Both the position numbers and the translations under genes were made by a program. A DNA stretch of 28,003 bases from a virus. Position 1 is the first letter of the stretch. The number at the start of each line of letters is the position of its first letter. The stretch covers positions 1 through 28,003 of IMG/VR virus record IMGVR_UViG_3300006919_000321, one strand, 5' to 3'. Below the pieces are notes generated by a model. It ran no database searches. It was not told where the DNA came from and saw only the letters and a program-made list of their open reading frames with translations. Below are positions 678-27,566 of this stretch, in pieces.

Positions 678-1457
678 ATGATCGATCAATTTGAAGACCT
701 AATGGGCATTGTACATGAGCCTACAGGTAATGCTTTTATTGATAAAATAAAAAATAAAAATATATGTTACAAAGGCGGTGGCGGTACTACAACTACTTCT
801 ACTTCGGGTGTACCAAAAGAATTCAGGCCTTATGTTACTAGAGGTCTTGCAGATGCTGAAGCAGCAAGAGAATCAGGTGAACTTAGCTTTGTAGCTGGGC
901 TTACTCCTGAACAAAAAGAATCACAAGAAATGCAACTTAATCTTGGTAGAGAAACGCTTCCAGGGATTGCAGAAGAATCTGCTGCAGCAAGAGGAGTATT
1001 AGGAGAAGCTTCTCGTGGTGAAGGAATTTTCGGTTCTGGTGCTTATGAAACAGTAGCTAACGATATGTCGGATAGACTTGCTTCTTTAGGTGATCAAGCA
1101 AGAGGAATGTCACAAACCCAATCTGCATTAGGTGGAGGTTTAGGTTCTGCCCGATCACAAGCAACAACTGAAAAAGCAGTAATGGATACTATGTTTGACG
1201 AAGTGAGCAAAGAAGTAGCTGCACAAAGAACAGGGCGTTCAGGTGCAGCACAAGATGTAATAGGCACAGGTGCTGACGTAGGCGCACAATACGGTTTAGG
1301 AGCTGCTGCAGTTGAAAGAGTAGGTAGTGCATTACAACAACAGGCACAAAAAGAAGGCGATACTACTTATCAAGGATTACAACGTTTCTTTGGATTATTA
1401 GGTTCACCAGCGGTAGGCTCTGAGACTACATCAACTCAAAGCGGAGGTGGTAAATAA
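678..1457 (+). CDS. Ala/Gly/Gln-rich putative internal core/ejection protein, 259 aa
   Basis: The protein has a short N-terminal segment, then a GGGGTTTTSTSG linker (about residues 34-45) followed by VPKEFRPYVTRGL, a combination often seen in podovirus virion proteins. A long, Ala/Gly/Gln-rich helical stretch with phased small residues (about 60-230) follows, ending in a Ser/Thr/Gly-rich tail. Size, composition and position directly before the two giant ejection-type proteins resemble T7 gp14, the outer-membrane channel component of the internal core, but there is no clear sequence match. AAGGAG precedes the ATG, which abuts the previous stop, and its own stop overlaps the next start (TAATG at 1455-1459). 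Function is inferred from context. Confidence 0.6.
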   Translation: MIDQFEDLMGIVHEPTGNAFIDKIKNKNICYKGGGGTTTTSTSGVPKEFRPYVTRGLADAEAARESGELSFVAGLTPEQKESQEMQLNLGRETLPGIAEESAAARGVLGEASRGEGIFGSGAYETVANDMSDRLASLGDQARGMSQTQSALGGGLGSARSQATTEKAVMDTMFDEVSKEVAAQRTGRSGAAQDVIGTGADVGAQYGLGAAAVERVGSALQQQAQKEGDTTYQGLQRFFGLLGSPAVGSETTSTQSGGGK

Positions 1458-1942
1458 TGAACTATATGGAATTATTTAAAGATGATCCTATCGCTAAATC
1501 AGAAGTAGATGAACAACCATTAGCCCAAATAGATAGGCAAGCGCCTTTAGCTCAACCAGTGCAACAAGAACAATCAGCTAGCGGTATGCTCAAAGAAAAA
1601 GCGATGGAAATGGGAACAGATAAAGCTAGTGAATTTGGTATGGATAAACTTGCTTCTATGTTTGCAAAGCCTACAATGTCAAGCATAGCATCACCTTTAA
1701 TGAAACAAGGTGCAGATGCAGCAATGGCTAATGCAGTAGCTAAAAATACGGTAGCAGGGGCTGGTGCAGGTGCTATGGGTGCATTAGGCACAGCAATGCC
1801 TTATATCGGTATGGGATTACTTGCTGGAAAGGCATTTGGTTTATTTAGTGATGGTGGTTATGTTGGACCATTATCAAGTGTAAAATATAAATATGGTGGC
1901 GGACCTGTTAAAGAAGAAGTCGAAATGAAATACGGTATGTGA
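1457..1942 (+). CDS. putative virion protein with hydrophobic helix and FSDGGYVG motif, 161 aa
   Basis: The first third is polar and Gln-rich. Residues about 90-130 (AVAKNTVAGAGAGAMGALG onwards to LLAGKAFGLF) form an Ala/Gly-rich hydrophobic stretch that could insert in a membrane. The end reads LFSDGGYVGPLSSVKYKYGGG. FSDGGYV is the first half of a motif seen at the ends of many tape-measure proteins (F-A/S-DGGYV-GpGt); the second half appears at the start of the next gene. GGAGGTGG precedes the start. Probably a small ejection or core protein; exact role unknown. Confidence 0.6.
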   Translation: MNYMELFKDDPIAKSEVDEQPLAQIDRQAPLAQPVQQEQSASGMLKEKAMEMGTDKASEFGMDKLASMFAKPTMSSIASPLMKQGADAAMANAVAKNTVAGAGAGAMGALGTAMPYIGMGLLAGKAFGLFSDGGYVGPLSSVKYKYGGGPVKEEVEMKYGM

Positions 1943-1949
1943 GGTTAGT

Positions 1950-4900
1950 ATGCATATAAAAAGTTTTACTCAAAAAGATAGATACGGAAATATGACTTCC
2001 GTAGAATTCTTTGAAGATCCTGGAATACCTTCTATTACTGTTATACCTGAATATGATCATCCTGGAGATCCTAAAGGTACTGACACAGTCCCTGCATGGT
2101 TAACTCCTGGAGAAAACGTAGTTAATGCAGAAGCATCTAGACTTCCTGGAAATCAAGAAATAATTGATAAGATGAATGAAGATGGAAGAGAAATACAACA
2201 GGCACAGGGTGGACCTATTCCTACGTATGCTAATGAAGGTAAGTTTATTGCAGCACCAAAACCTGATTGGTTAACTGAAGATTTAATTTATGCGTTAATG
2301 CTTGCAGAGTCTAGTGGTAATGCAGATGCTAAAAACCCTAGTAGTACAGCTACAGGATTAGCACAAATTTTAATAAACACTGCTGCAGATCCAGGATATA
2401 AGACTCAACCATTATCTCCTGAAGATAGAAAAGATCCTGTTAAAGCTAAACGATTTGTTGAGCAATACTTAAGTGGAATACAAGAAGCTTATCCTAAATT
2501 TACACCAGAACAAGTGATTACTGCATATCATGCTGGTCCAACAGGTATGAAAAAATATTTAGATGGTAAAGGAAAACTTCGTGAAGAATCACAAAATTAT
2601 TACAATAGAGTATTAGGTCATCAAAAAGGACTTTCTAGTCTAAGAGAAAATAGTGGAATGATTCCGACTCTTACTAAAACTGGGATTGGATATAAAAGTA
2701 TTGACCCTTCTCCTGAAGAAGAAATAGCTAAAGGTAATTTAATCCCAGTTGAAGAGTATTTAGGTATACCTAAAGAACAAGCACCACCTCCAGTAACCCC
2801 TGAAAGAGTGCAACAAGAAAAAGGGATGACAACATTTATGCAGTCATTATTACCAAGCCTAAAAGTACCTATGTATAAAGCAACGGGTACAGTTAGTACG
2901 GATGATGAGTTTGCAAGAGAAAGGGAAGAACAAAAAAGAATAGCACAAATGATTACTGCTAGTGGTGCAAATGTAGTAATGCCTGAAGGTGATGCTAATA
3001 TTCTTAATCCAGAAGAACAACAAGAACAAATTCAAAATATAAATACGGCTAATATAGCTAAGCTATTTCCAGAACTTGATGAAGAAGATGCTCAAGCTAG
3101 TCTAGTTATTCCTCCACAAAAACCAGCATTAAGCACATTCCAAAGTGCCGATGGTCAAACAAGACCTGTTACTGAAACACCATTATCTCAAATACCCAGT
3201 TTAGGATTAGGGTATGACGAACTTATGGCAGAAAAAAGAATAGAACAAAAACAAGAAAGAAGAGCAGACGCTTTAGCAATAGCACAGGCTAATCAACCTA
3301 AAACACCATTATCTCAAATACCTAGTTTAGGATTAGGAGATTATAATCCTACTATTGCTGAAGGAAAACAATTTGATTCTGATGTAATAATTCCTGCCCC
3401 TACAAAAGAACAATTAAATAAACTTAATCTAGATATAGAAATTCCTAAAGAAGAAACTCCAGAGTTATCTCCCATAGATCAAGTAATTTCAGATTACGAA
3501 AGCATGAGATCGCGTGGTCTTTCTAGTGGTAAAGCACCTTTAAATGATCCTGCTTTTCTTAAGCCCTGGAACGACTTAACTTTAGAAGAAAAAGAAAAGT
3601 ACTTAAATTTTGTAAGTCCAGATAAATTAGGCATTTCACCTTTAAGAAGAAGTGTTAGTATTCCGACAGCAGAAAATACAACTTCTGAAGATGAAGCAAA
3701 TAAAATATCAGAGTCTGTAGGTCAAGTTGATTTAAGTAACAAAGGAGAATTAACACCTTCTACAAAGTTAGGTACATTCCAAAGTGACGATGGTCAAACA
3801 AGACCTGAAAACACTCCACAACAAAAAGAAGCTTTAACTACTATAGCTGATAGAGCAGATAAAATTACACCTGAAGGCGAAGCAAGTATTCAAGCATTAT
3901 TGAATAGTTTAAAGCCAAGTGAAAAAGATAAAGTTAATAAAATAGCTAGTAACGTGGGTGGCTGGTTTAAAGATGCATTTAGTGATTTATTTAGTGGACC
4001 TGAGTTAGCACGAATGGCATTGCTTTATGCAGGAAGTAGAGTTGCTGGCTATGATCATAATTCTTCACTTGGTTATTCGGCTAAACAATATCTTAAAAGA
4101 GTAGATGCACAAAATGCTCAATTCCAAAAAGATATTCGTGATGAAGATTATCAAGATTTTACTGAAGCGTCTCGCAAAGAGTTTGAAAAAACTAAAGATT
4201 ATTCTGTATTAAGAAAGAAACCAGAAGCACCAGCAGGTATATCAGGTACATCAGGAACTAAATACGATACTTATAAAGGAACTATTGTACAAGTTTATAC
4301 TGTAGGCGAAGGCGCAAATAAGCGTTTAGTTGTTAATGATAATGGTACACTTATACCAGCTACATCTAGTCGTTTTGAAGTTGTACAACCTGAAACACAC
4401 AATTTAGCAAAGGTTACAGATAGATTTAACACTGCATTACAAGCCAAAGCTGATGAAATTAATAAAACAAGAACTAAAGAGAAAGAACCACTTATTGACT
4501 TTGCAACTCAAGAACTTGCTCAAGAGTCTGCTAATTTTTATAATGCAACACGTCAATTATTTAGAATGAATGTAAACACTTCTCAGCGTCTTCGTTCAGA
4601 AATACTTGGAGCACAAGCTGATTATTTAGAAGCTATGGCTAAAGGTGAAAATCCGTCTAGCATAGAAGGTTTCTACAATAAAAGAATTATTAGTCTTAAA
4701 ACAGGTAAAGCAATTAGCTTTAACGATATAAAAAATACTGATGCTGAAAAGTTTAGCCAAGTAGATCAATCAATAATGACGTTAGCTAGAAATCAAGCAG
4801 TAGATGAAAATAAAGATGCAGGTAAATTGTATAGAGAATTTTGGGAAAAAGCAAAATCTGATTGGAATAAAATAGAAGATAAAAAAAGTTATTCTAAGGC

Positions 4901-4997
4901 AAGCTATACAGATGGTTATGATCCTTTTGTAATGTGGGTTAGAGATGTTATACTCGAAGTACCCGAAGCAGTAGCGTTATCACCTGATGAAAATTAA
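1950..4997 (+). CDS. internal virion/ejection protein with lytic transglycosylase domain, 1015 aa
   Basis: This is probably a virion protein that opens peptidoglycan during DNA entry. Residues about 105-225 match the SLT/lysozyme-like transglycosylase pattern: LIYALMLAESSGN with the candidate catalytic Glu at 120, TATGLAQI (133-140), ITAYHAGPTGMKKYL (190-204) and QNYYNRVL. In T7 this domain is at the N-terminus of gp16; here it sits on a separate protein. Residues 43-75 carry GTDTVPAWLTPGENVVNAEA, a motif familiar from tape-measure proteins. The middle (about 240-640) is low-complexity, Pro/Gln/Glu-rich and contains two short duplications; the rest is largely helical. It starts 7 bp after the previous gene with GAGG upstream. 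The transglycosylase call is firm; the virion location is inferred from neighbours. Confidence 0.82.
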   Translation: MHIKSFTQKDRYGNMTSVEFFEDPGIPSITVIPEYDHPGDPKGTDTVPAWLTPGENVVNAEASRLPGNQEIIDKMNEDGREIQQAQGGPIPTYANEGKFIAAPKPDWLTEDLIYALMLAESSGNADAKNPSSTATGLAQILINTAADPGYKTQPLSPEDRKDPVKAKRFVEQYLSGIQEAYPKFTPEQVITAYHAGPTGMKKYLDGKGKLREESQNYYNRVLGHQKGLSSLRENSGMIPTLTKTGIGYKSIDPSPEEEIAKGNLIPVEEYLGIPKEQAPPPVTPERVQQEKGMTTFMQSLLPSLKVPMYKATGTVSTDDEFAREREEQKRIAQMITASGANVVMPEGDANILNPEEQQEQIQNINTANIAKLFPELDEEDAQASLVIPPQKPALSTFQSADGQTRPVTETPLSQIPSLGLGYDELMAEKRIEQKQERRADALAIAQANQPKTPLSQIPSLGLGDYNPTIAEGKQFDSDVIIPAPTKEQLNKLNLDIEIPKEETPELSPIDQVISDYESMRSRGLSSGKAPLNDPAFLKPWNDLTLEEKEKYLNFVSPDKLGISPLRRSVSIPTAENTTSEDEANKISESVGQVDLSNKGELTPSTKLGTFQSDDGQTRPENTPQQKEALTTIADRADKITPEGEASIQALLNSLKPSEKDKVNKIASNVGGWFKDAFSDLFSGPELARMALLYAGSRVAGYDHNSSLGYSAKQYLKRVDAQNAQFQKDIRDEDYQDFTEASRKEFEKTKDYSVLRKKPEAPAGISGTSGTKYDTYKGTIVQVYTVGEGANKRLVVNDNGTLIPATSSRFEVVQPETHNLAKVTDRFNTALQAKADEINKTRTKEKEPLIDFATQELAQESANFYNATRQLFRMNVNTSQRLRSEILGAQADYLEAMAKGENPSSIEGFYNKRIISLKTGKAISFNDIKNTDAEKFSQVDQSIMTLARNQAVDENKDAGKLYREFWEKAKSDWNKIEDKKSYSKASYTDGYDPFVMWVRDVILEVPEAVALSPDEN
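3135..3807 (+). repeat. duplicated 34-bp segment inside the 1015-aa gene
   Basis: The 34 bp at 3135-3168 and 3774-3807 differ at one base (GCC against GAC). Both encode TFQS(A/D)DGQTRP. They lie in the low-complexity part of the transglycosylase protein, about 640 bp apart, and look like a recent internal duplication or gene conversion. Confidence 0.85.
3175..3337 (+). repeat. duplicated 37-bp segment inside the 1015-aa gene
   Basis: The 37 bp at 3175-3211 and 3301-3337 differ at one base. Both encode TPLSQIPSLGLG. The first copy begins within about 10 bp of the end of the first 34-bp repeat, so two repeat families are interleaved in this linker region. Confidence 0.85.
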
Positions 4998-5011: not shown

Positions 5012-5037
5012 AAGGTAGGGAGGCAACTCCTTACTTT
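5012..5037 (+). promoter_or_regulatory. stem-loop with GCAA tetraloop before the 1409-aa gene
   Basis: An 11-bp stem pairs 5012-5022 with 5027-5037 around a GCAA (GNRA-type) loop. Two of the pairs are G.U (5014/5035 and 5018/5031), which are allowed in a + strand RNA but would be A.C mismatches on the other strand, so the structure belongs to the late-strand transcript. It is followed by ATTTTT and then the ribosome-binding site AAAGGAG, 19 nt before the ATG at 5057. It could be a weak or partial rho-independent terminator, an RNA-processing site, or a protective 5' leader hairpin. Confidence 0.6.
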
Positions 5038-5056
5038 ATTTTTAAAGGAGCATTGA

Positions 5057-8000
5057 ATGGAAACTTTCCGTAATAACGATAACGAGTCTTTTCTTGTAAT
5101 AGATGGCGATACTATTGCTAATACTAAGGGAGAACGTTTACGTATTGGAAACATTAATGCCAGAGAGATAGATAAGATTATTGAAAAAGATGGCGGTTTT
5201 GAATTTAAAGAAGGTCAAGTAGGTGGTGACGCACAAGCCGCAGCTATAACTAGAATAATCAAAGAAGGTGGTTTTACAAACGTTGAATATTCAAATAATT
5301 ATGATGAATTTGATCGTCAAATTATTAATCTTATTAACAATAAGGGTGAAAATTTAGAAACAAAATTAGTAGCTTCGGGTGTAACCGAGGTAAGTCCTTA
5401 TACTTCAGAAGAAGCTATTATAGCTAAGCGAGAACAAGAACTATATGAAGCTGCTTTAGGTAAAGAAGATGATTTAGCTAATAGATTAGGCGATGAAATA
5501 AATCAACAAATTGCCAGTGAAGGCTTGTTGTATAAAACAAAAGCAATTAATGAAAGATATTATGATCCTGAAATACATTCAGGAGTCCAGTTTAGAGATC
5601 CAAATCGTACAATAGATAACAAAGCAATAGGTATTTCAGGTCAAGTTGCCACTGCATGGGATCAAGGTTGGGATGGTGTTAAAGAAGGACTATGGGGCTA
5701 TCTTGATGCAATAGGACAAACAACAAATATTGAAATGTTTGAAAACCTAGGTGAAGCAGGAGTACGTGCTGCTAGAGATAGAATGTCAAATGCGCCTGAG
5801 ATTATATTAGATTATAAAGAAATTGATAATGTATGGGATGCTTTTAGTTGGACAATGAATAATGCAGTAATGTCTGCTCCTTATCTTGTAGCAACTTTTG
5901 GTGCAGCGGCAGCAGCCGTTCCTGCAACAATTGTAGGTGGTCCTGTGTTAGGTGGAGCAACTGCTTTAGCTCCTATTTCAGCAATATATGCTGGTCATAC
6001 TTGGAATGAGATGGAAGGTGAAAAAGGTATTCCGCAATTTTTATCTGCAACTGCAGCTGGTGTAGCTGCGGCTTCCGTAGAAAGACTTGGTATGAAAGCA
6101 TTAATAAGTCCTACAGACATATTATCTAAACAAGGTTTAAATAAACTAATTAATGTTTACGCTAACAAAAACAATATATCAGTAGATAAAGCAAAAGAAA
6201 TTGTAGTTAAAACAGTTAGTCAAGAACAAGCATCTATGGCACGATCTTTACTTAGAATGAAACCCTCTGACATTGCTAACTTTACAGGCATGGGTGTAGT
6301 TAAAGCAGCAGGCATTGGTGCATTAACTGAAAGTGGAACTGAAGTAATACAAGAAGGTATACAAGCAGCGACTGCTGGTTTAATGTCTGATAAAGATTAC
6401 ACTAAGGATGAACTAGTTAATCGTTTTATTAATGCAGGTCTTGCAGGTGGTGTACTTGGATCTGGCTTTTCTACAGCAGGAAATGTATATAACCAAGGTA
6501 AAAATACACTTTTAAAATCTGATTTAGCGAATGCAAGAACAGATAGGTATAGAATAATTGAACAAGCTAGAATAAGAGACTCTCAAGCTAGCAACACTAC
6601 ATCTAGAAAACCTTCAACTGTAGAAAAAAATATTGACAGCGTTGATAATGAAGTTGAAAAACTTGGTTACGATTATGATAGTAATATAAATCACTTTTCT
6701 AATGAAGCACAAATTCACGAGAATGAAAAAAGAGGATTTAAAAATATTATTAAAAATAATGAAGATGTTGCCGATTATATATCAACTATAACTAGTGGAT
6801 TTGGAAAGTTATTTAAAGCAGCTGAATCATCTGCAATTGATTTTAATAAATTAGTTCAAAGTAAAATTGGATTAGATATTTTTTCCCGTATCGGACAAGT
6901 GACAACAGGTGTTTATCATGCTGGTCAAAATTTTAAACAATATAATGATCAACTTATTTCTGATTTTAAATCTTATGTTGATGAAACAGCAATTGCTAAA
7001 TCTTTCGGTGAAAAAAATCTTAACTCTAAAAACGCTGTTACTATCTCTAAAAAGTTAAGAGAGTTTGGACGTAATGGTGGTTTTGAAAATTATGAATTAA
7101 TGATTTTACAACAACAAGGTGCATTTGATTTAGCAGATAGCTATATTAAAGGAGACCGCAGTACAGATATTATAGAAGAATTAAGAAATTTAAATTTAAC
7201 GACTGATAGTGAAATAAGAGAATATTATACTAGAGCTAAAAAATTTGCTAATGGTGTAGTACCTCTTGAAGCATTAGGTGTGTCTAGTGTTATTGAAGCA
7301 AATTCCTTATATGCTGCCTCAAAACAAATTAAAAATTCTTATGACGTAGCATATAATGCTATCAATGAAGAGTATGAAAAAGCTAATAAAGGTAAAACAA
7401 TTCCTTATAGAAGTGACTATTGGTGGAGACATCAAGGCTTTGATCATGTTAAAGTTAGAAAAAACCCTGCAAAATTTAAGAAGTGGTTAGCTAATATTGA
7501 CCCTACACTCGATGTAGAAACGATATATCAAAATATAGCTAATCGTGGAGCGCACGGAGCACAAGGGGACTTCTCTTTAGTTGGTGGAGTTAAATGGAGA
7601 CCTTGGTCTTTTAACCCCATGGCTGCAAATATAACTGATGCTAAAGATTTTTCGGATTGGTCTAATGATAATTTGTTTGAATCATTAAATAAAACTCAAA
7701 TTGAAGCAGCTAAATATAATTCAACTACTAGATATTTCGGAGAAGGCGGTTCTAAATTATCTAAACTATTTCAAGATCTTAGAGAAGAAAAAGTTTTAAC
7801 TGAAGAAGAGATTCAAAAATTTGCTTGGTACACTAAAGCAATTATTGATAGTTCTCACGGTAACTTTAGAAGAATAAAAGATCCACGTTGGGCTGCAGTA
7901 AATAACTTTTTAACTTCATGGTCTATATTTGCAGGCTTACCATTGTCTACTATTTCTTCTATTCCAGAAACTGCTATGATTTATTTTAAGGTAAAGGATA

Positions 8001-9286
8001 GCGATGAATGGAAACAAGCAAATAAAAGATTTATACAAGAGCTTACTGGTGCATGGGATAAAGCTTTAAAAGCAGAAGTAAATATTGCTAAAAAACAATT
8101 AGAGTTATCTGGTCTTTCAGAAGATCAAAACACAGTTGTTGATAGATTAGCTACAGGTGAACGTGATGTTTCTTATATTAAAGCACATGAAGCATTTTTT
8201 AGAACAGTAGGTATTAAACAATTTACACAATGGCAAAGAAGAATGAATTCAGCATTTGCTGTTGATACAGTTAAGTCAGGAATGAATCGCTTAGAATATG
8301 CGCCTAAGAAAAAATCAATTGATTCTGATAAAGAAGTATTTGATTTAGATAATTTTAATGAAGTTGAAATGCGAACTTATTTAGATCTTAGCGATTTAGG
8401 TATCGAAGTTCAGTCTTTATATGATTATTTTACTGAAGTAGATGAAATTTATCGTGATAAATTATTTGATATAACAGATAATCGTTCTATAGACGCTAAT
8501 TTAGATGAGTATATTAGGTCGCCTACAACAAGAGAAACTGCAACTAGACAGCTTGCAAGGAAAGAAAAACTTAAAGGCGAACCATTACTTGAAAGAGCAA
8601 TGGAAATACAAGAAGAAATAAATGAACAAATACAAACTGCTATTTATAGATTTGTAAATGAGCGTATTCAAAATCCGCAAGCAGCTAATCGTCCTTTGTT
8701 TTTTCAAGATCCTCATTATCAATTGTTTACCCAGTTTAACGGTTTTATTAGTACATTTACAGCTAATATAATCCCTAAACTCTGGCGTGATCAATTAGCA
8801 AAAGGTAATCCTAAAGTTAAATATGATACTTTTGCATTAGTCATAATGATGTTAGCATTAGGCGGTGCTTCTCAGTATATTAAAGATTTAATTAAATTTG
8901 GACAATCGAGTCCCTATTTAAATGAAGTAGGTTATATACAGAGAGCATTATATTCTTCTGGTGTTATCGGACAATATGAGAGAGTAGTAGATTTAGCTCA
9001 TCCCCTCTATCCGCAAAGAGGAGACGGACTAGAATGGATGTTTAATACACTATTAGGAGAAGCTGGTCCTTCTGCTAGGAATATTGAAACAATATTTACA
9101 GCGACAGGACAGGCGTTATCAGGAGAAACTGAACGAGCAGTAGCCAATGCAGGTAAAGTACTACCTGGAATTGGTCCTATTACTTCTCTTCGTAGATCTT
9201 TAGCTGATATAACACACTTAGAAAACCCCCTTAAAGGGGTAGAATTGCCTGATTCAGATGATGTAATCAGCGTATTACTAAAATAA
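5057..9286 (+). CDS. large ejection protein with N-terminal SNase-like nuclease domain, 1409 aa
   Basis: The N-terminal 115 residues look like a staphylococcal-nuclease (SNase/OB-fold) domain: VIDGDTI with D16 and D18, LRIGNINARE with R29 and E37, and YDEFDR with R87, then LETKLVASGVTEV. The second Ca-ligand Asp of SNase appears to be Asn34, so activity is uncertain. Hydrophobic Ala/Gly-rich stretches lie at about 270-345 and 410-475. The C-terminal 200 residues (PHYQLFTQFNGFISTF, then NIIPKLWRDQLAKG and FALVIMMLALGG) resemble the end of T7 gp16-type channel proteins. It probably helps form the DNA-ejection channel across the inner membrane. It is preceded by AAAGGAG and follows the transglycosylase gene after a 59-bp gap with a hairpin. 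Context and C-terminus are fairly firm; the nuclease fold is by eye. Confidence 0.78.
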   Translation: METFRNNDNESFLVIDGDTIANTKGERLRIGNINAREIDKIIEKDGGFEFKEGQVGGDAQAAAITRIIKEGGFTNVEYSNNYDEFDRQIINLINNKGENLETKLVASGVTEVSPYTSEEAIIAKREQELYEAALGKEDDLANRLGDEINQQIASEGLLYKTKAINERYYDPEIHSGVQFRDPNRTIDNKAIGISGQVATAWDQGWDGVKEGLWGYLDAIGQTTNIEMFENLGEAGVRAARDRMSNAPEIILDYKEIDNVWDAFSWTMNNAVMSAPYLVATFGAAAAAVPATIVGGPVLGGATALAPISAIYAGHTWNEMEGEKGIPQFLSATAAGVAAASVERLGMKALISPTDILSKQGLNKLINVYANKNNISVDKAKEIVVKTVSQEQASMARSLLRMKPSDIANFTGMGVVKAAGIGALTESGTEVIQEGIQAATAGLMSDKDYTKDELVNRFINAGLAGGVLGSGFSTAGNVYNQGKNTLLKSDLANARTDRYRIIEQARIRDSQASNTTSRKPSTVEKNIDSVDNEVEKLGYDYDSNINHFSNEAQIHENEKRGFKNIIKNNEDVADYISTITSGFGKLFKAAESSAIDFNKLVQSKIGLDIFSRIGQVTTGVYHAGQNFKQYNDQLISDFKSYVDETAIAKSFGEKNLNSKNAVTISKKLREFGRNGGFENYELMILQQQGAFDLADSYIKGDRSTDIIEELRNLNLTTDSEIREYYTRAKKFANGVVPLEALGVSSVIEANSLYAASKQIKNSYDVAYNAINEEYEKANKGKTIPYRSDYWWRHQGFDHVKVRKNPAKFKKWLANIDPTLDVETIYQNIANRGAHGAQGDFSLVGGVKWRPWSFNPMAANITDAKDFSDWSNDNLFESLNKTQIEAAKYNSTTRYFGEGGSKLSKLFQDLREEKVLTEEEIQKFAWYTKAIIDSSHGNFRRIKDPRWAAVNNFLTSWSIFAGLPLSTISSIPETAMIYFKVKDSDEWKQANKRFIQELTGAWDKALKAEVNIAKKQLELSGLSEDQNTVVDRLATGERDVSYIKAHEAFFRTVGIKQFTQWQRRMNSAFAVDTVKSGMNRLEYAPKKKSIDSDKEVFDLDNFNEVEMRTYLDLSDLGIEVQSLYDYFTEVDEIYRDKLFDITDNRSIDANLDEYIRSPTTRETATRQLARKEKLKGEPLLERAMEIQEEINEQIQTAIYRFVNERIQNPQAANRPLFFQDPHYQLFTQFNGFISTFTANIIPKLWRDQLAKGNPKVKYDTFALVIMMLALGGASQYIKDLIKFGQSSPYLNEVGYIQRALYSSGVIGQYERVVDLAHPLYPQRGDGLEWMFNTLLGEAGPSARNIETIFTATGQALSGETERAVANAGKVLPGIGPITSLRRSLADITHLENPLKGVELPDSDDVISVLLK
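9222..9243 (+). promoter_or_regulatory. promoter-like site P3, late strand
   Basis: AAAACCCCCTTAAAGGGGTA (from 9222) matches the - strand site at 23647-23666 at 17 of 20 positions. It lies inside the last codons of the 1409-aa gene (NPLKGV) and 92 bp before the 1159-aa gene, pointing towards it. It could be a promoter for a phage RNA polymerase, or a chance match in coding sequence. Confidence 0.4.
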
Positions 9287-9334: not shown

Positions 9335-12300
9335 ATGGGTAAATTTAGTCAAACAATAGCGAATGCAAAACGAGCTAAAGCTCCAACAATGTCACCTCAA
9401 GCGGTGGCTTTAGAACAAGAACAAAGAAAAATTACACAAGCGGAAGAAACTTCTCCTGCTATTTTAGAGACCCCTGTTGAACAGTTAGGTGTTACTCGAA
9501 CACAAGCTCCTCCCGAAGAAACAGAAGGAGTACTTTCAACACCACAAATAGCTCCTAGCCAAATGGAACAAACAGAAGAATTAGTTCAAGCTTCAAAGAG
9601 TATAGCTCCTATAGCTAGGGAAGTCTCTAAGCGAGGAATTACTAATTTAGAAGGAGAAACTGATTTTAGCCCTGCTGCGGCACAAGCTGCAGTAACCGAA
9701 GAATTAAAGTCTCAGTATGAAGCTGCGCCTATTTATGCACAAGATTCAGATGAAGATTTTTTTGATTATAGAAGTACAGATCAATTAAAAAAACGATTTG
9801 AAAATGTAACATCTACTCGCGATGCTTTAATGAATGTAGTAAATACAGGCTTTGAATTAAGAGAAAGATTAGATGACTCTTTCAGATTAGCTTTGAATGA
9901 TACAACAGATACTGCACAAAGTGTAAAAAATATTTTAGTAAAAAATGATTTATTAGATACAACTACAAATCAATTACAACCTAAAGTAGCTAACGCATTA
10001 ACTATTCAGCTTATTGAATCTATACAAGATCACATTAATAAACGCGATGATCGTGCAACTGGTAATTATAATTCTACAATGTCAGAAATGGTTTCCTTGT
10101 TTGATGTTGATGAGCCTGCTAAAATACAAGGACAAATACTTAATCCTGAGTATACAAGAGGTAAATTAGCTAGAGGTGTAATAGGAAAATTAGTACAAGC
10201 ACCTACTCAAGAAGGGCAAGTAGTTAGTGGTTATGGTAATGCAGGAGTTACATTAGATCCTGAATCAGCCGATTATTTAGACACGCTTATGTGGAACGCT
10301 GTTAAAGAAATGGGTTTTCTTGAGTATAATACTGACGGACAAAGTGAATTTTATAAGATGTCAGAAGGGGCTGAAAATTTTTTTAATAATACTAGAGAAT
10401 TATTAACTGATATACAACCTGAAAATAGAATAGATGTATCATCTACACCAACAATTGAAGGTCAATCTTTACCTGGGTTAGAAAGACTTAAAGGACGTTC
10501 AGCTGGTCCCGTGTCTCAAAAGTCTAAGCTAGATGAAAATATGGTAATTGAAAATCAAGTTAAAAATAATCTTGGTCGTATGCCATTGCGTATTTCTACA
10601 GATCGTTATGCCTTTGCTATGCAAGTAGTTGCTTCTGTAATACAAGTAGCAGAAGATGGTAAAACAATTACAGGATTAGCAAAACAATCGGATAGAGGTT
10701 TTTTCTCAACTGAGCCATGGGCATCAATGATAGGTCTTGACGAAAAAAAATGGACAAAAGCATATAGCCGTGGATTAAAAACTCATAATGGTAATGAAGC
10801 ATTAGCAACTGAACAAGCAGATCGTGTAGTTAGAAGAGAAGCTAAAAAAATATTTCAAACTATGATAGATGGAGATAATAAAGCTAACAAAGTCTTTTAT
10901 AATAAATGGTTTCATGCGTCATCAGTAGGTCGCTATTTTGTTAGAAACACAATGCTTAATTACCAAGACAGTAAGCTTGTAAGAAATTTTTTAAGTAATG
11001 CTAAACGGACTCCTCTTAATTTAAATAATAGTACAGATAAAAATTCAAAAATATTATCTAATTGGAAATATATTATTGGTAAAAATCTTTTAACTCCAGA
11101 AGAAGTTAATCTAAAAGACAGAACAGGTGCGTTTGTTAGAACAGAAGACATGACTTGGAATGCAGTTATGAGAGCCTCTGAAAAAGTAATTAATGATCCT
11201 TTAAATAAAACCTATCAAAAATGGTATGCTACAGGCGATAAACTCAGAACAATAAAAGATAGCGACTATATTAATATTGAGGCTTTAAATGAATTAGTTG
11301 GCCCTGATTTTATATCAGAGTTTCAAGACCCTGCAGAATGGGGTTACAAATTACAATCATTAATTGATTTTGCAAACTTTATAGATGCTAAAAAGAAAGC
11401 AAAAACAAATCCAGATTCTATTGCATTATTTGAACCCCAAGCTCAAACTCAACATGACGGTAAACAAAACGGAATTGCAATACAAGCAATGCAACTTGGT
11501 GATGTAGATTTATTAGCTGCAGTAGGTACTATTTATAATCCTGAAGAAGGCGTAGTAATTCCTGAAGGTGATATCCGTAGAAAATATATAATGGAAATGT
11601 CATCTTCTATTAAAAAAACTTTTACACAAAGTCCAGAAAAAGTAGATCTATGGTTATCTGTAATTGACGGTATTGACAAAAACGAAGATAGAAAAGCAAT
11701 TACTAGATTGATATCTAGAACGCCTTTACTGGAAGTCTCTTATGGTAAAGACCCCTCTTATAATCATGAAACTGTAATTGAATTTTTAAGAGGAAAATAC
11801 GGTTACATTATTCGTGATGCTATACGTACAAGCGATGTGCTTGATTACGAAAATGAAAATCGATTGATTGAAGATTTTAATTCATTAATTAAAACAACGT
11901 TAACGGACACTTTAAACACAAAACATCAAAAAACACTTCAAAGCATGGGACTATTATGGTCTATGATGGGTAAAACACCTTATTATAAAGGACCGCTTGG
12001 TACTACTATTTTTTTAGGCTCAACTGAATTTACAAAAACGGGAGTTACAGTACCTATCCCTACCCCCGAAGGCACTATATTTAAAGATATAAAAATAAGT
12101 AAACCCACAGGGAGTAAAAGATCTAAAAGTAAAAAGATATTAAATAAAGAGACGGGTTGGTGGGAAACTGCGAAGCCTTCTAGATATGGACAAGAAGTTT
12201 CAAATCAATTGCCTGTTATTTCTATTCAACAAATTGATGCTGCTATTATGGCAAAAACAATTAATGATATTAATAATAACAGAAAGGAATCTCTTTTTAT

Positions 12301-12814
12301 GTTACCCGTTCATGATGCGATTATTACAGACGCATCTAGTGTAGATGAATATCATGCAAGGATTAATAAAAATTTTGTAGAAGTAAATAAAAATTATAAT
12401 TTAGCAAATAATATTTTAAACGGTTATAATGAAGCTAAAAGCATTTTTCAGAATACAACTAATCCGAATGGAACTTATTTAATATCTGAGGATAGTCCTT
12501 ACCGCGCAATCCATACTTATTTAATTCAAAAGATAGAACAACAAAAAGAAAAATCAGGCAAGATAGTTGCACCATTAACAGGCCAAAGAGGTTTAAGAAA
12601 AGGAAAACTAGATGAGCTGATAGCTACTATTAAATTAAATAATTGGACTGAAGATGGAGGTAATGTAACAGGTAATAATCTATTAACTATTTTTAAAGCA
12701 ATTGAGAATTACGAACGACTTAAACCTAATTTTAATGAATGGAAAAGACTTTCAGAAATTGGAAAGAAGAACGCATTAAAAGAATTAGCTGAATTAATTT
12801 ATGAGTATAATTAG
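9335..12814 (+). CDS. putative virion-packaged single-subunit RNA polymerase (N4 vRNAP-like), 1159 aa
   Basis: All four polymerase signatures of the T7/N4 family appear in order. (1) SSVGRY, S529-x-x-G532-R533, matching the T/DxxGR element. (2) QTQHDGKQNGIAIQAM, motif A with D708 (T7 D537, FDGSCSGIQHFSAM). (3) RLISRTPLLEVSYG, motif B with R791, R795, Y803, G804 at the spacing of T7 R627, K631, Y639, G640. (4) ISIQQIDAAIMAKTI then LPVHDAIITDA, motif C with H993, D994 (T7 H811, D812). The usual motif B Lys is Arg795. Spacings (179, 87, 199 residues) lie in the family range. Its 1159 aa are close to the ~1100-aa catalytic core of the N4 enzyme. Residues 1-140 are low-complexity. It sits last but one in the virion block, where packaged ejection proteins are expected. 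Polymerase homology is strong; packaging is inferred. Confidence 0.8.
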   Translation: MGKFSQTIANAKRAKAPTMSPQAVALEQEQRKITQAEETSPAILETPVEQLGVTRTQAPPEETEGVLSTPQIAPSQMEQTEELVQASKSIAPIAREVSKRGITNLEGETDFSPAAAQAAVTEELKSQYEAAPIYAQDSDEDFFDYRSTDQLKKRFENVTSTRDALMNVVNTGFELRERLDDSFRLALNDTTDTAQSVKNILVKNDLLDTTTNQLQPKVANALTIQLIESIQDHINKRDDRATGNYNSTMSEMVSLFDVDEPAKIQGQILNPEYTRGKLARGVIGKLVQAPTQEGQVVSGYGNAGVTLDPESADYLDTLMWNAVKEMGFLEYNTDGQSEFYKMSEGAENFFNNTRELLTDIQPENRIDVSSTPTIEGQSLPGLERLKGRSAGPVSQKSKLDENMVIENQVKNNLGRMPLRISTDRYAFAMQVVASVIQVAEDGKTITGLAKQSDRGFFSTEPWASMIGLDEKKWTKAYSRGLKTHNGNEALATEQADRVVRREAKKIFQTMIDGDNKANKVFYNKWFHASSVGRYFVRNTMLNYQDSKLVRNFLSNAKRTPLNLNNSTDKNSKILSNWKYIIGKNLLTPEEVNLKDRTGAFVRTEDMTWNAVMRASEKVINDPLNKTYQKWYATGDKLRTIKDSDYINIEALNELVGPDFISEFQDPAEWGYKLQSLIDFANFIDAKKKAKTNPDSIALFEPQAQTQHDGKQNGIAIQAMQLGDVDLLAAVGTIYNPEEGVVIPEGDIRRKYIMEMSSSIKKTFTQSPEKVDLWLSVIDGIDKNEDRKAITRLISRTPLLEVSYGKDPSYNHETVIEFLRGKYGYIIRDAIRTSDVLDYENENRLIEDFNSLIKTTLTDTLNTKHQKTLQSMGLLWSMMGKTPYYKGPLGTTIFLGSTEFTKTGVTVPIPTPEGTIFKDIKISKPTGSKRSKSKKILNKETGWWETAKPSRYGQEVSNQLPVISIQQIDAAIMAKTINDINNNRKESLFMLPVHDAIITDASSVDEYHARINKNFVEVNKNYNLANNILNGYNEAKSIFQNTTNPNGTYLISEDSPYRAIHTYLIQKIEQQKEKSGKIVAPLTGQRGLRKGKLDELIATIKLNNWTEDGGNVTGNNLLTIFKAIENYERLKPNFNEWKRLSEIGKKNALKELAELIYEYN

Positions 12815-13131: not shown

Positions 13132-15261
13132 TTAACAAAACAAGTAATCAGAATTAATAACTTCAGATATTTGCAATACGCCAATTGTAGGAGGGAGTAT
13201 ATTAATACCTTTTCCGAAGGGAATAGTATCATAAAAGTTTTCTTTATCATATAACGTGATAAACTTTTCTCTAGTATCTACCATGAGACGTTCTGTTTCC
13301 GTAGCGTAACTACTAAACGAATCATGAACTGCACCAAAGTCGCTATCCCACTCTGCAATCACTAATGCCATATGACTAGCATCCATGCTATGAACAAAGT
13401 TAGGGCTGATACCACACATGAATCCTCTTCTATCAGGGATATCAGTCTTTTCTCTAAGTACGTGTTTAAATCTTATTTCTCCTTGCGGAGTATTAAATCC
13501 GTAGCAATCTACCTTAACAGGTCTAGTACGATAACACTCATATATAACAGGAAATCCAGATGGTGTTTCCCATTCTATAGCGTGGCCTCTATCCGTACCG
13601 TACAATCCTCTCCAATTAAGTATCTCTTGATCAGCTAATTGTTGAAGATATTTCATAGTAGTTAATGGTCCTGGGCAGACTTCTTCAATTGCTTTTATTA
13701 TTTGACCGCTAAGATCTATACAGTCTTGTTCGGAAATATTATATAAATTAGTATAACCATATTGATAACAATCGCTATACATTGATTCAGCCATTTTCTT
13801 TTGACCACAGCTGTAAGCACGAGTCATAGCAGCTCGCTTAGCAATTCCTTTTCTAATATGCTTCATTGGTATTTCTCTTTCTTCGAACCAATCAGGCATA
13901 CGTTCAGTAAGTCGTTTAGCTATCTGTACATAAAAATCATTTTGCACTTTTCTAGGTATAAGACCTACTAATAGTCCTGTCTTCTCGTCTTTAGACATTG
14001 CACCAAGGTGTTGCCAACCGTTATTAGCCCCATCAATAGGTAAAGGAAGATGAGTATAAAAGTCAAGATCATCTTGTTGAGCCTTATAGTAGTTATACCA
14101 CTCAATACAACAAGCTAGAAAAGAAATTTCTTTTTCTGCTTCTTTACTTATTATTTTCATTTCACCTAATTCAAGAATTTCTTCTAGGTGTTGTTGAGTC
14201 CACATTGCTCTGTCTTCTAATGTCATTTTATCTACTGAGATAGTATCTAAGCCTTCTTCTTCTAAGATACTTTTGTAATCAGTTGTAACCCAATTAGGTA
14301 TTTCTTCTATATGATAAGAACGATTGTAACAACAAGCAGTATGAACGGCTAACCAGAAATTAGCAGATTCATTAAACAGTTTACCTTCTGAAAAGAGTAA
14401 TTGTCCTCTTGCCATGTCTGATCCTTGGAAGTTAAAGAAAGGTTCTGAGTAATATAATCTTCCTCTATAATCAGCGTCAATATAAAAGTAAAAATCTTTA
14501 GACAGCCATTTAGCTGCAGTAGCCATTATCTCTTTTACTTCTCTGTTTTTTGAAGCTTGACGTTGATATAGCTTATCATTCTCTTTCTTATCATCTCCAG
14601 AAAACTTTTCAGTCTTAATAAACATAGAATAGTTATCTAGAATTGCTTGATGTACTTCATTATTAACCTTAAATCGAGTTGCTTGAAGTTTATTTATTGC
14701 CTTTACAAATGGTTTATCTTTATATTTAATAAACAAATGCTCTTTAGATTTGTCCCATGTTTTAATAACAGGCTTTCCATTATCTTGAAACAAAGAAGTA
14801 ATAATAGGAATAGCTGTTTCACTAATACAATTAGTTTTACCAGCAATTACTTCCATCTCACCCCATTTATCAGTAGCGTGTATAGTAACTGGCTTACGAC
14901 TCTTAATATGACCCACAGATATTGTTAAGTAATTACACATAACAAAGCCTTCAATAATTAAATCACCTACTCTAACATGGTCTCTAAAGTTAACATTGTT
15001 ACTGTCCCAACCTTCAACTATATATTTACCTATAGCCATTGAAGTTTGAGTAATAGGCGTTTCACCCTCTGTTTTACTACGTTTAAAGCAACGTTGTATA
15101 TATTTTCTGGCATAGCTTATCATATCATCTACTAAGAAATCAAGCATATCTACACCATCAGTGTCAATCATTCGCATTATTTGAATATTACGTCTAGGTT
15201 TTACACCTAGATCCTCACTACGGATTCTCGTTAAGAGATATTGTTTTATGTCCTGCATCAT
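13132..15261 (-). CDS. T7-like single-subunit DNA-directed RNA polymerase, 709 aa
   Basis: This phage RNA polymerase has all catalytic motifs intact: DADYRGRLYY (D264, G267, R268), motif A PIDGANNGWQH with D410, motif B AKRAAMTRAYSCG with K475 and Y483, and motif C PNFVHSMDASHMAL then AVHDSF with H646, D647. T7 RNAP is 883 aa; this one is about 175 aa shorter, nearly all missing before DxxGR (residue 264 against 421), so the promoter-binding N-terminal domain is reduced. The C-terminus ends in DYLFC, not the T7 FAFA. It is the last gene of the leftward block, unlike T7 where RNAP comes first, and overlaps the preceding gene by 44 bp. It probably transcribes middle and/or late phage genes from short specific promoters. 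Confidence 0.96.
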   Translation of the reverse strand: MMQDIKQYLLTRIRSEDLGVKPRRNIQIMRMIDTDGVDMLDFLVDDMISYARKYIQRCFKRSKTEGETPITQTSMAIGKYIVEGWDSNNVNFRDHVRVGDLIIEGFVMCNYLTISVGHIKSRKPVTIHATDKWGEMEVIAGKTNCISETAIPIITSLFQDNGKPVIKTWDKSKEHLFIKYKDKPFVKAINKLQATRFKVNNEVHQAILDNYSMFIKTEKFSGDDKKENDKLYQRQASKNREVKEIMATAAKWLSKDFYFYIDADYRGRLYYSEPFFNFQGSDMARGQLLFSEGKLFNESANFWLAVHTACCYNRSYHIEEIPNWVTTDYKSILEEEGLDTISVDKMTLEDRAMWTQQHLEEILELGEMKIISKEAEKEISFLACCIEWYNYYKAQQDDLDFYTHLPLPIDGANNGWQHLGAMSKDEKTGLLVGLIPRKVQNDFYVQIAKRLTERMPDWFEEREIPMKHIRKGIAKRAAMTRAYSCGQKKMAESMYSDCYQYGYTNLYNISEQDCIDLSGQIIKAIEEVCPGPLTTMKYLQQLADQEILNWRGLYGTDRGHAIEWETPSGFPVIYECYRTRPVKVDCYGFNTPQGEIRFKHVLREKTDIPDRRGFMCGISPNFVHSMDASHMALVIAEWDSDFGAVHDSFSSYATETERLMVDTREKFITLYDKENFYDTIPFGKGINILPPTIGVLQISEVINSDYLFC

Positions 15262-17709: not shown

Positions 17710-17905
17710 AACGAGCTTCCTTTCTGCGATGCCTAGCTCTGTTTGATTTATTTATTTTTTCTGCCTTTTGATTTTTATTATTAAATATATCTATTAAATC
17801 TTCATCCCAATCCTTTTCGGTAACTTCATTTTTCTTTGAGGGGATTATCGTATGCTTACGAATATCATTATAGTAAGGATTACGCATATTCTTCTGCGAT
17901 CTCAA
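17678..17905 (-). CDS. small basic hypothetical protein, 75 aa
   Basis: I do not recognise this protein. It is 75 aa with many Lys/Arg and Asn, and a very basic C-terminal end (KSNRARHRRKEARYAKEKR) that could bind DNA or RNA. It overlaps the GIY-YIG-like gene upstream by 26 bp and the primase-helicase downstream by 32 bp. The reading frame is reasonable for the operon, but no motif supports a function. Confidence 0.6.
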   Translation of the reverse strand: MRSQKNMRNPYYNDIRKHTIIPSKKNEVTEKDWDEDLIDIFNNKNQKAEKINKSNRARHRRKEARYAKEKRIYGK

Positions 17906-18500
17906 TTTGTCTCTCCATATTTTTCATTGAAGGTTTAAATTTAATTTCATGAACCCATTTGTTATACCAACTATTAGAGCATAGCGCATGAGTTTTTAGT
18001 ATCATAAAGGCTTCCATGTAGCTTAAGTCACCTTTCATTTCGCAAGAAAATAATATATTGAATATAAAATTTTCTTTACCTGCAGCTTTGATTTCATCGT
18101 TAAGCTCAAGAGAAGAACTAGTATATCCTTTCCAGCTCGTGTGTAGTGTTTTAACCCCAATGTATCGTTTAAGGTTTTTAGTATCTGTAATTATATATAA
18201 GAAACCATAATGCGATTCATCAAATGCTTCAGGGTTTATTATAGTCCAATGGCTTTCTACTTTGATATGACCCTTTACATCATCAGCAATTGTTGGTGTA
18301 ATGCCATTAAGAAAATAAATAGTTAATGGACCTTTAAATCCTTTCTTTAATTTAAATCTATATTTATTTCTGCGTTTACAACGTATTTCACCATGTTCTT
18401 TTGTAATAATACCACACCAATTATTAGTATCGAATTGTGTAACACGTTCTACCTGAACGTTATGCCAACGCTCATGATTATTAAATCTTAAAGAAGTCAT
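17880..18500 (-). CDS. GIY-YIG nuclease-domain protein, 206 aa
   Basis: Residues about 97-180 fit a GIY-YIG nuclease: YGFLYIITDTKNLKRYIG (GFLY at 99-102, YIG at 113-115), then WKGYTSSS, LNDEIKAAGKENFIFNIL, the candidate catalytic Glu163 in SYMEAFMI, and N180 in WYNKW. The pattern from GYTSSS to ENF is typical of the Seg/homing-endonuclease branch. The first 95 residues (WHNVQVERVTQF, GEIRCKRRNKYRF and on) are of unknown fold and may bind DNA. It overlaps the exonuclease gene by 20 bp. It lies among replication genes where T7 has the gp3 junction-resolving nuclease, so it may be a host-DNA degrading or branch-resolving enzyme, or a homing nuclease. The usual Arg after YIG is not obvious. Confidence 0.72.
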   Translation of the reverse strand: MTSLRFNNHERWHNVQVERVTQFDTNNWCGIITKEHGEIRCKRRNKYRFKLKKGFKGPLTIYFLNGITPTIADDVKGHIKVESHWTIINPEAFDESHYGFLYIITDTKNLKRYIGVKTLHTSWKGYTSSSLELNDEIKAAGKENFIFNILFSCEMKGDLSYMEAFMILKTHALCSNSWYNKWVHEIKFKPSMKNMERQIEIAEEYA

Positions 18501-22512: not shown

Positions 22513-22795
22513 TTAATTTCTCCTTTGATTCTTTACTTAAAGCTATTTCATTATCTTCACTTACTATAATTTCTCCTTCTTGCATAAACCAATAACATAA
22601 GTCAGAAAATTGTAAGAATAAAGTAAGATATAGTTCATGATCTTCTTCAGGAATCAATTGTCTAATTAATTCTCCACCGAAAGAAGACCATAATGAAACT
22701 ATTGAAATAGTTAATAGCATTTGTCCTTCATAATTATTATCTTCTAATTCAACTTTTATAATTTTGTGAGATTTAAAATCAATTATATCACCCAT
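22454..22795 (-). CDS. hypothetical protein, 113 aa
   Basis: I do not recognise this protein. It is 113 aa and acidic, with a mixed hydrophobic middle (GQMLLTISIVSLWSSFGGEL and on to LFLQFSDLCYWFMQEG) that looks like buried helices more than a membrane span. The ATG overlaps the SSB stop by one base (TAATG at 22795), so it is coupled to the SSB gene and may be needed with it. Confidence 0.62.
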   Translation of the reverse strand: MGDIIDFKSHKIIKVELEDNNYEGQMLLTISIVSLWSSFGGELIRQLIPEEDHELYLTLFLQFSDLCYWFMQEGEIIVSEDNEIALSKESKEKLIDVIKSIKREFAGNNNTTH

Positions 22796-23292
22796 TAAAA
22801 ATCTACCTTGTCTATTTCTTCTGGTACATCTTCGTTATCTTCGATTTCAAAATCAACTGCTTGCGTAGGTTGATACTTTAATAATTCAGTTACTTGTATT
22901 TTAGAGAGTATAGACCCTACTCCTTTTCTACCGCTAACATCGTAAGGATATTGAAATAACATTATATTTCCGATAGAACCATTACCAATGGTAGTTCCAT
23001 CAATAGACTGTTTGTTACCATCGAGTACTTCAGGTGGTGTATTAGGATTTCCGTCTTTGTTGATTGCTTTACGTTTAATATTTGATTTATAATAAACTCC
23101 ATCATCATCCTTTTCTGTCTTAGTAGTTAAATAGAATTTATCTTTCCATTCTTTAGCTTTCTTTTCATCTCTAGTACGTATTTGTACTTCCCATTGTGAA
23201 GTTCCGAATGGACTTACAGGTGTTACTACTTTTGCCCAGTGTAATTCTGCGTCTCTAATAATTACTGTTCTTTTATCATCTAGCATACTCAT
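22795..23292 (-). CDS. T7 gp2.5-like single-stranded DNA-binding protein, copy 1, 165 aa
   Basis: The core TTIGNGSIGNIMLFQYPYD then SKIQVTELLKY matches T7 gp2.5 (IGGGSKLKVKYSLVPYKWN then LESVMLVELA), and the protein ends in an acidic tail with a terminal Phe (EDVPEEIDKVDF). That tail is the gp2.5 hallmark for contact with polymerase and helicase. The N-terminal part (IIRDAELHWAKVVTPVSPFG) matches the second SSB at 27099-27566, so they are paralogues. It coats ssDNA during replication and recombination. It overlaps both neighbours by one base. Confidence 0.85.
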   Translation of the reverse strand: MSMLDDKRTVIIRDAELHWAKVVTPVSPFGTSQWEVQIRTRDEKKAKEWKDKFYLTTKTEKDDDGVYYKSNIKRKAINKDGNPNTPPEVLDGNKQSIDGTTIGNGSIGNIMLFQYPYDVSGRKGVGSILSKIQVTELLKYQPTQAVDFEIEDNEDVPEEIDKVDF

Positions 23293-26304: not shown

Positions 26305-26407
26305 TATGTAGTCCTTTCTATTCTATATTTTTTAAGTTCATATTTTAATACACTCAAAAGTACATTCTCAGTAACATTCCCACGTAAACTACTCACCTTT
26401 ACCTAAT

Positions 26408-26455
26408 AATACCAAAGTGGTCCTATTAATAGTACCAAAGTGTTACTATTAAATA
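26408..26455. repeat. tandem 23-bp repeats, cluster 1
   Basis: Two units start at 26411 and 26434 (each ACCAAAGTG...CTATTAA), 23 bp apart. The first contains the perfect palindrome CTATTAATAG at 26423-26432. The 23 bp at 26411-26433 recur exactly at 26518-26540. Confidence 0.85.
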
Positions 26456-26514
26456 CTTTTAATAACTTACTACGGTAAGAGGTCTCAGTGTTTACTGTAA
26501 GTATTACTATAAAT

Positions 26515-26560
26515 AGTACCAAAGTGGTCCTATTAATAGTCTCAAAGTAGTTTTATTTAA
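26515..26560. repeat. tandem 23-bp repeats, cluster 2
   Basis: The exact copy of the first unit lies at 26518-26540 with its palindrome at 26530-26539. A degenerate unit (CTCAAAGTAG...TTATTTAA) starts 23 bp later at 26541. Cluster spacing is 107 bp. Confidence 0.85.
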
Positions 26561-27098: not shown

Positions 27099-27566
27099 TT
27101 AGAAGTCAGCTTTGGCTTCTTCTGCAGCTTGACCTGTACCTATGATATCAAAATCAATAGAACTTTCTTCTTTATATTCTATGAACTCCGTAACCTGTAC
27201 CGCAACCAATATTGTCTTAGTACCAGATTTACCAGCTACATTCCAATCATATTGATATACAATAATATTACCTTTAGAACCATTACCTATCTTTCCTTCT
27301 AATGGTCTTTTAACTTCGTCTACAACACGTACAGGAGTTTCTTGTCCCTTAGCATTAGTAGGCTTTCTGGTTATGTTAATAGAAAACGAACCATCGTCTT
27401 GTGGCTTTACTTTACCATAAGCTGACATTTCCTTAACTCGTTTCTTCGGGAATCTAACCTGAAGATCGTAGATAGTAGTGCCAAATGGTGTTTCTACTGG
27501 TTTATCCAACTTTGCCCAGAAGAAAGTTAAGTCACGTAGGATGGTTGTTTGATTTTCGTTTGCCAT
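27099..27566 (-). CDS. T7 gp2.5-like single-stranded DNA-binding protein, copy 2, 155 aa
   Basis: KIGNGSKGNIIVYQYDWNVA then VAVQVTEFIEY matches T7 gp2.5 (IGGGSKLKVKYSLVPYKWN) better than copy 1 does. It ends EEAKADF, with a milder acidic tail and a terminal Phe. It shares with copy 1 the pattern RD..(L/F)..WAK...PV..PFGT and the IGNGS core, so they are paralogues, though the tails differ. It is flanked on both sides by double-hairpin leaders and has TGAAAGGAAA upstream. It coats ssDNA and probably recruits replisome partners through its tail. Confidence 0.85.
   Translation of the reverse strand: MANENQTTILRDLTFFWAKLDKPVETPFGTTIYDLQVRFPKKRVKEMSAYGKVKPQDDGSFSINITRKPTNAKGQETPVRVVDEVKRPLEGKIGNGSKGNIIVYQYDWNVAGKSGTKTILVAVQVTEFIEYKEESSIDFDIIGTGQAAEEAKADF

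What the first reader, a model, noticed from the sequence alone, without database searches (positions are those of the whole stretch)
5057..5401. Staphylococcal-nuclease-like domain at the front of an ejection protein
Residues 1-115 show DGDT, RIGNINARE and the FDR arginine in SNase order. A nuclease-fold domain on a channel protein that enters the cell could cut host DNA, process the entering end, or act only as a binding OB-fold, since one Ca ligand is Asn34 instead of Asp.
Basis: partly seen in the sequence, partly recalled or inferred. Interest (0 to 1): 0.68.

Follow-up and report, generated by a model that had tools for sequence, protein, structure and literature searches.

The report
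Nuclease domain on phage ejection protein
A marine short-tailed phage carries a staphylococcal-nuclease-type domain, with nearly all of its cutting residues conserved across relatives, at the front of a large protein probably injected into the host, so it may deliver a ready-made DNA/RNA-cutting enzyme together with its genome.

Summary
Residues 1-136 of the 1409-aa ORF (5057-9286) form a genuine staphylococcal-nuclease (SNase) domain. A family profile finds essentially only SNases in the PDB. The AlphaFold model (pLDDT 90, pTM 0.81) has SNase topology, and the top structural matches are all SNase (Z 10.3). In 25 homologous domains, including that of the cultured roseophage CRP-7, eight positions are invariant. 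They include D16, D18, R29, E37, R87 and D83, the equivalents of SNase D19, D21, R35, E43, R87 and D83. The worrying Asn34 (SNase D40) is Asp in 17 relatives, Asn in 5 and Glu in 3, and Asn in 2 of 16 cellular SNases, so it does not by itself signal inactivity. The protein body belongs to a 'virion structural protein' family. It lies between a transglycosylase protein and a second single-subunit RNA polymerase (fold Z 25.8 to T7 RNAP, 22.3 to N4 virion RNAP). Best reading: an SNase module in the enzyme slot that T7 gp16 fills with a transglycosylase, delivered with the ejection proteins as a probably active nuclease. Fold and residues are shown; activity, virion location and target are inferred. 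One precedent exists (a tail hub). Verdict: new variant of a known kind.

The parts
5057..5464 (+). SNase-fold domain, residues 1-136 (D16, D18, T19, R29, N34, E37, D83, R87)
5057..9286 (+). 1409-aa ejection/virion protein carrying the SNase domain at its N-terminus; hydrophobic stretch at residues 270-310; C-terminal part matches PHROG 6958 'virion structural protein'
   Evidence: E 6e-14; homologue L012 E 7.6e-25; hydropathy; homologues
5044..5050 (+). Shine-Dalgarno AAAGGAG for the ORF
   Evidence: sequence
1950..4997 (+). 1015-aa neighbour with SLT transglycosylase domain (residues 108-212), first member of the three-gene ejection-type cassette
   Evidence: Pfam PF01464 E 3.3e-14; synteny
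9335..12814 (+). 1159-aa single-subunit RNA polymerase-like protein, third member of the cassette (candidate virion RNA polymerase)
   Evidence: invariant R533, D708, Y803, D994 in homologues; fold Z 25.8 to T7 RNAP and 22.3 to N4 mini-vRNAP
678..1942 (+). two small conserved virion-cluster proteins (259 and 161 aa), position of T7 gp14-like ejection proteins; role inferred from order only
   Evidence: synteny

Best explanation
The domain is a true SNase-family nuclease module fused to the N-terminus of a large podoviral ejection protein of the CRP-7-like marine phages. It sits in the N-terminal enzyme slot that T7 gp16 fills with a transglycosylase; here that activity is on the preceding protein. 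Shown by computation: the fold, the invariant catalytic set and the gene context. Inferred: the protein is packaged and leaves the head before the DNA; the SNase domain, tethered at the end of the ejectosome and held off the phage's own DNA, is supplied with Ca2+ on the envelope side or shortly after entry and cuts nucleic acid non-specifically. The likeliest use is attack on host nucleic acid early in infection, feeding the phage 5'-3' exonuclease and nucleotide enzymes. Rough probabilities: SNase domain 0.97; catalytically competent 0.75; delivered with the ejection proteins 0.75; host nucleic acid as target 0.4.
For: Homology to SNase by profile, fold and Pfam over cut-off in homologues. 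Only invariants in 25 domains: D16, D18, T19, R29, E37, D83, R87, G97. dN/dS about 0.12-0.24 across the domain between close relatives. N34 is D/N/E in the family and N in 2 of 16 cellular SNases. All 22 viral loci found through body motifs, not SNase motifs, keep the domain. Virion-protein family match. Cassette order small proteins / SLT / SNase / RNAP kept in window-like loci and, at lower similarity, in CRP-7. T7 gp16-N is an exchangeable enzymatic domain on the periplasmic side (PMC8954989). No T7-type endonuclease I found in these records, including complete CRP-7, although T7-like replication genes are present.
Against: No activity, virion proteomics or topology data. One Ca ligand is Asn in the window protein. 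A nuclease packed near the phage genome must be restrained by an unknown means. Absence of endonuclease I is weak evidence for a role, since most records are fragments. No sequence similarity to T7 gp16 was found.
Confidence: 0.68

Rival explanations
1. The domain is a catalytically dead OB-fold that only binds DNA or another ejection protein.
For: One Ca ligand is Asn in the window and four relatives and Glu in three; a tethered nuclease beside phage DNA looks dangerous.
Against: D18, R29, E37 and R87 never vary in 25 sequences while most of the domain diverges to 22-40% identity; binding alone would not need both arginines and the glutamate. Asn at this site occurs in cellular SNases.
Confidence: 0.17
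2. The nuclease acts on the phage's own DNA: trimming or nicking an end at packaging or entry, for example to make a single-stranded start for the neighbouring virion-type RNA polymerase.
For: The SNase protein is directly followed by a second single-subunit RNAP whose fold also matches N4 vRNAP; N4 vRNAP uses hairpin promoters (own knowledge).
Against: SNase family enzymes are sequence-non-specific (own knowledge); no processing site or end structure is known here; the window is a fragment without end repeats.
Confidence: 0.12
3. The nuclease stays on the envelope side and destroys foreign DNA there (competing phage DNA or DNA at the cell surface) rather than host DNA.
For: By analogy T7 gp16-N lies in the periplasm (PMC8954989); seawater and periplasm are rich in Ca2+, the cytoplasm is not (own knowledge).
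Against: No direct evidence of topology; benefit to a single infecting phage is unproven.
Confidence: 0.22

Closest known systems
Staphylococcal nuclease / thermonuclease family (PF00565)
   Same: Fold, order and identity of D19, D21, R35, E43, D83 and R87 equivalents; profile and fold matches.
   Different: N-terminal domain of a 1.4-kaa phage protein rather than a secreted enzyme; Asn in place of D40 in this member; a predicted beta-hairpin (residues 40-51) after E37; activity untested.
T7 gp16 ejection protein (N-terminal transglycosylase, membrane segments, C-terminal cytoplasmic DNA-binding part)
   Same: Large protein of the late virion cluster with an N-terminal enzymatic domain followed by a hydrophobic stretch.
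   Different: Enzyme is a nuclease, not a transglycosylase (that is on the preceding 1015-aa protein); no detectable sequence similarity to gp16.
SNase domain on the tail-hub homologue of Bacillus prophage-like region BtI1 (relative of phage 0305phi8-36 gp147; PMC2147016)
   Same: SNase domain at the N-terminus of a phage virion protein in a slot otherwise used by a cell-wall enzyme; those authors could not say why.
   Different: Myovirus-type baseplate hub, not a podoviral ejection protein.
CRP-7 gp34 (roseophage CRP-7, MK613349; annotated hypothetical) and uncultured Caudovirales protein A0A6J5NQ80 (1342 aa, auto-annotated SNase-like)
   Same: CRP-7 gp34 is a true homologue with the same domain (HMM E 2e-18) and the same gene order; A0A6J5NQ80 matches the domain by fold (E 3.9e-4).
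   Different: CRP-7 gp34 body is about 20% identical; I found no published functional description of the domain in either.
Phage polyvalent ejected proteins (PMC5512222) and N4 virion RNA polymerase
   Same: Enzymes carried in the virion and delivered with DNA; the neighbour ORF has the single-subunit RNAP fold.
   Different: The polyvalent-protein paper's main text does not mention SNase; here nuclease and RNAP are separate proteins.

Membership tests
Staphylococcal nuclease family (PF00565) | Profile-level sequence homology to SNase | tested here: met
   PDB profile search E 5e-5, shown hits all SNase; hhalign E 1.3e-9; homologue L007 over Pfam cut-off (27.2 vs 21 bits). The window sequence alone is below the cut-off (13.5 bits).
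Staphylococcal nuclease family (PF00565) | SNase OB-fold topology (barrel strands, helix, two strands, two C-terminal helices) | tested here: met
   AF2 pLDDT 90.2, pTM 0.81, elements as expected; top Foldseek and VIA rows all SNase, Z 10.3, 117 residues, rmsd 3.7.
Staphylococcal nuclease family (PF00565) | Catalytic Asp21, Arg35, Glu43, Arg87 | tested here: met
   D18, R29, E37, R87, invariant in 25 sequences, aligned to SNase.
Staphylococcal nuclease family (PF00565) | Asp40 Ca2+ ligand (not shared by all members) | tested here: inconclusive
   Asn34 in the window; D 17, N 5, E 3 in the family; N in 2 of 16 cellular members.
Staphylococcal nuclease family (PF00565) | Ca2+-dependent nuclease activity | not testable with these tools
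   Needs a biochemical assay.
Podoviral ejection (internal virion) proteins | Encoded in the late virion cluster with other ejection-type proteins | tested here: met
   Order small proteins / SLT / SNase / RNAP kept in window-like loci and in CRP-7.
Podoviral ejection (internal virion) proteins | Member of a virion-protein family | tested here: met
   PHROG 6958 virion structural protein, E 6e-14 window, 7.6e-25 L012.
Podoviral ejection (internal virion) proteins | Present in virions and ejected before DNA | not testable with these tools
   Needs virion mass spectrometry and ejection assays.
T7 gp16 homologues | Sequence similarity to gp16 | tested here: inconclusive
   No Pfam match of the body above cut-off and no PHROG match named gp16; divergence in this class is high (PMC8954989).

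The most novel reading that the evidence does not exclude
CRP-7-like marine podoviruses eject a three-enzyme cassette ahead of or with their DNA: a wall-cutting transglycosylase, an SNase-armed channel protein and a virion RNA polymerase of the single-subunit kind. The phage would arrive able to cut host nucleic acid and transcribe its own genes at once, although it also encodes a separate T7-like RNA polymerase. A packaged single-subunit RNAP has been described as unique to N4-like Schitoviridae (PMC12633501).
Probability: 0.45. Interest if true: 0.8.

Novelty: new variant of a known kind. Interest (0 to 1): 0.6.

Why it matters
Enzymatic domains known on podoviral ejection proteins are mostly wall hydrolases or the N4 polymerase. 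A conserved nuclease there would make the question of when host nucleic acid attack begins (before any phage gene is expressed?) directly testable in a cultured phage, CRP-7. It also raises a concrete puzzle: how a non-specific nuclease is kept off the packed phage genome. The adjacent second single-subunit RNA polymerase, not recognised in the CRP-7 genome paper's text, widens the interest.

Tried and rejected
The weak tblastn hits in Pelagibacter phage Baldr and Enterobacter phage Tyrion (E 5-9) were judged chance: the Baldr stretch lacks DGDT and has no profile match. Vibrio phage Phriendly and Pseudomonas phage KPP25 share only the C-terminal body and have no SNase. Inserts of 88-272 aa at body residues 501-550 of five homologues have no Pfam match. 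NCBIfam gave nothing relevant. Paper searches for SNase on phage virion or ejection proteins found no study of it. Kinetics of SNase position-40 mutants could not be sourced in the library, so none are quoted.

Full report
What is there. The window is a 28,003-base virus record, classed as a linear fragment, with late genes on the + strand (up to about 13.1 kb) and T7-like replication genes on the - strand: RNAP, primase-helicase, 5'-3' exonuclease, family A polymerase. The finding lies at the start of ORF 5057-9286, 1409 aa, with a good ribosome-binding site.

Is it SNase? The single sequence is borderline for Pfam SNase (13.5 bits, cut-off 21) and finds no PDB relative. With homologues the case is clear. 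Twenty-two viral loci encode relatives (best segments 29-78% identical), found with patterns from the protein body, and all keep the N-terminal domain. A profile of 18 of these domains matches staphylococcal nuclease in the PDB with E 5e-5, aligning DGDT, R35, D40, E43, D83 and R87 in register. hhalign against 16 cellular SNases gives 96% probability, E 1.3e-9. Members L007, L005 and L008 pass the Pfam cut-off in their own right. The AlphaFold model of residues 1-140 has pLDDT 90.2 and pTM 0.81 with SNase element order; Foldseek's listed matches are all SNase (best E 1.8e-4) and VIA-align gives Z 10.3 over 117 residues at 3.7 A. No coordinates were returned, so the distance between the active-site residues was not measured.

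Is it likely to cut? Across 25 domains, including CRP-7 gp34 and its relatives, the invariant positions are D16, D18, T19, R29, E37, D83, R87 and G97, with G25 in 24. The domain is under purifying selection (dN/dS about 0.12-0.24). Position 34 (SNase D40) is Asp in 17, Asn in 5 and Glu in 3, and on a tree of the protein bodies the Asn label changes at least twice on well-supported branches. Two of 16 cellular SNases with the motif also have Asn here, one of them the highest-scoring of its sample (L057, 93 bits). Asn34 is therefore natural variation, not a sign of death. Activity itself is untested.

What protein carries it? The C-terminal body matches PHROG 6958, 'virion structural protein' (E 6e-14; homologue L012 E 7.6e-25), and distantly the structural or particle proteins of Pseudomonas phage KPP25 and Vibrio phages. 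One hydrophobic stretch, residues 270-310, may be membrane-active. The order small proteins / transglycosylase protein / SNase protein / RNAP-like protein, then the opposed RNAP and primase, is kept in window-like loci. It is kept in CRP-7, a cultured roseophage with a short tail (PMC6918029), at much lower similarity; gp33, the RNAP-like member there, was aligned by position and motif. In T7, gp16 carries a transglycosylase at its N-terminus on the periplasmic side and a DNA-binding C-terminal part in the cytoplasm, and such enzymatic domains are swapped among ejection proteins (PMC8954989). The SNase domain occupies the same position; the transglycosylase is on the preceding protein (Pfam SLT E 3.3e-14).

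The neighbour. The 1159-aa protein downstream shows the single-subunit RNAP motifs: the GR motif (R533), motif A Asp708, motif B Tyr803 and motif C Asp994, invariant in the aligned homologues. Its model (pLDDT 72.6, pTM 0.72) matches T7 RNAP at Z 25.8 and N4 mini-vRNAP at Z 22.3, the latter over 753 residues. It is a second polymerase next to the T7-like one at 13132-15261. Placed in the ejection cluster, it is a candidate virion RNAP. A recent preprint calls packaged vRNAP unique to N4-like phages (PMC12633501). No relative of it was found by tblastn among annotated phages.

How it most likely works. Shown: fold, catalytic residues, selection, context. Inferred: packaging, ejection, restraint inside the head, Ca2+ supply outside, and target. 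I favour attack on host nucleic acid, because the phage group has exonuclease and nucleotide genes and no T7-type endonuclease I was found even in complete CRP-7, but this is weak evidence. Clearing of foreign DNA at the envelope and processing of phage DNA remain open.

Known or new. SNase domains in phages are known as stand-alone genes, and one N-terminal SNase on a tail-hub protein was noted in 2007 without explanation (PMC2147016). The main text of the survey of polyvalent ejected proteins does not mention SNase. An SNase on a podoviral ejection protein is, as far as these searches show, undescribed apart from automatic annotation of one uncultured phage protein matched by fold. I rate it a new variant of a known kind.

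Noticed in passing
9335-12814 (+): Second single-subunit RNA polymerase-like protein in the ejection cluster, with catalytic motifs conserved and a fold matching T7 RNAP (Z 25.8) and N4 vRNAP (Z 22.3); candidate virion RNA polymerase outside Schitoviridae.
   Followed up: partly
26404-26560: Four near-palindromic copies of about TTAATAGTACCAAAGTGGTCCTATTAA in an intergenic region, each a possible hairpin with a 3-nt AAG loop; related sites in G003, G005 and CRP-7 (1517-1534). Could be phage RNAP promoters, hairpin promoters of a virion RNAP, or operators.
   Followed up: partly
5012-5037 (+): Strong terminator-like hairpin followed by T-rich sequence between the transglycosylase ORF and the SNase ORF (folding z -4.1).
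   Followed up: partly
window 6557-6706 (protein residues 501-550); L004, L005, L006, L007, L009: Variable slot in the body of the SNase protein: five homologues carry 88-272 extra residues there with no Pfam match.
   Followed up: partly
22795-23292 (-) and 27099-27566 (-): Two proteins alike by eye; the first is an Enc34-type single-stranded DNA-binding protein candidate (Pfam E 3.6e-5, just under its cut-off).
   Followed up: no
17880-18500 (-): SegE-like GIY-YIG endonuclease in the replication module (Pfam E 1.5e-16).
   Followed up: no
L056 (CALGTL010000115.1): A contig of this phage family is binned in a Dehalococcoidia metagenome-assembled genome, probably a binning error rather than host evidence.
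   Followed up: no
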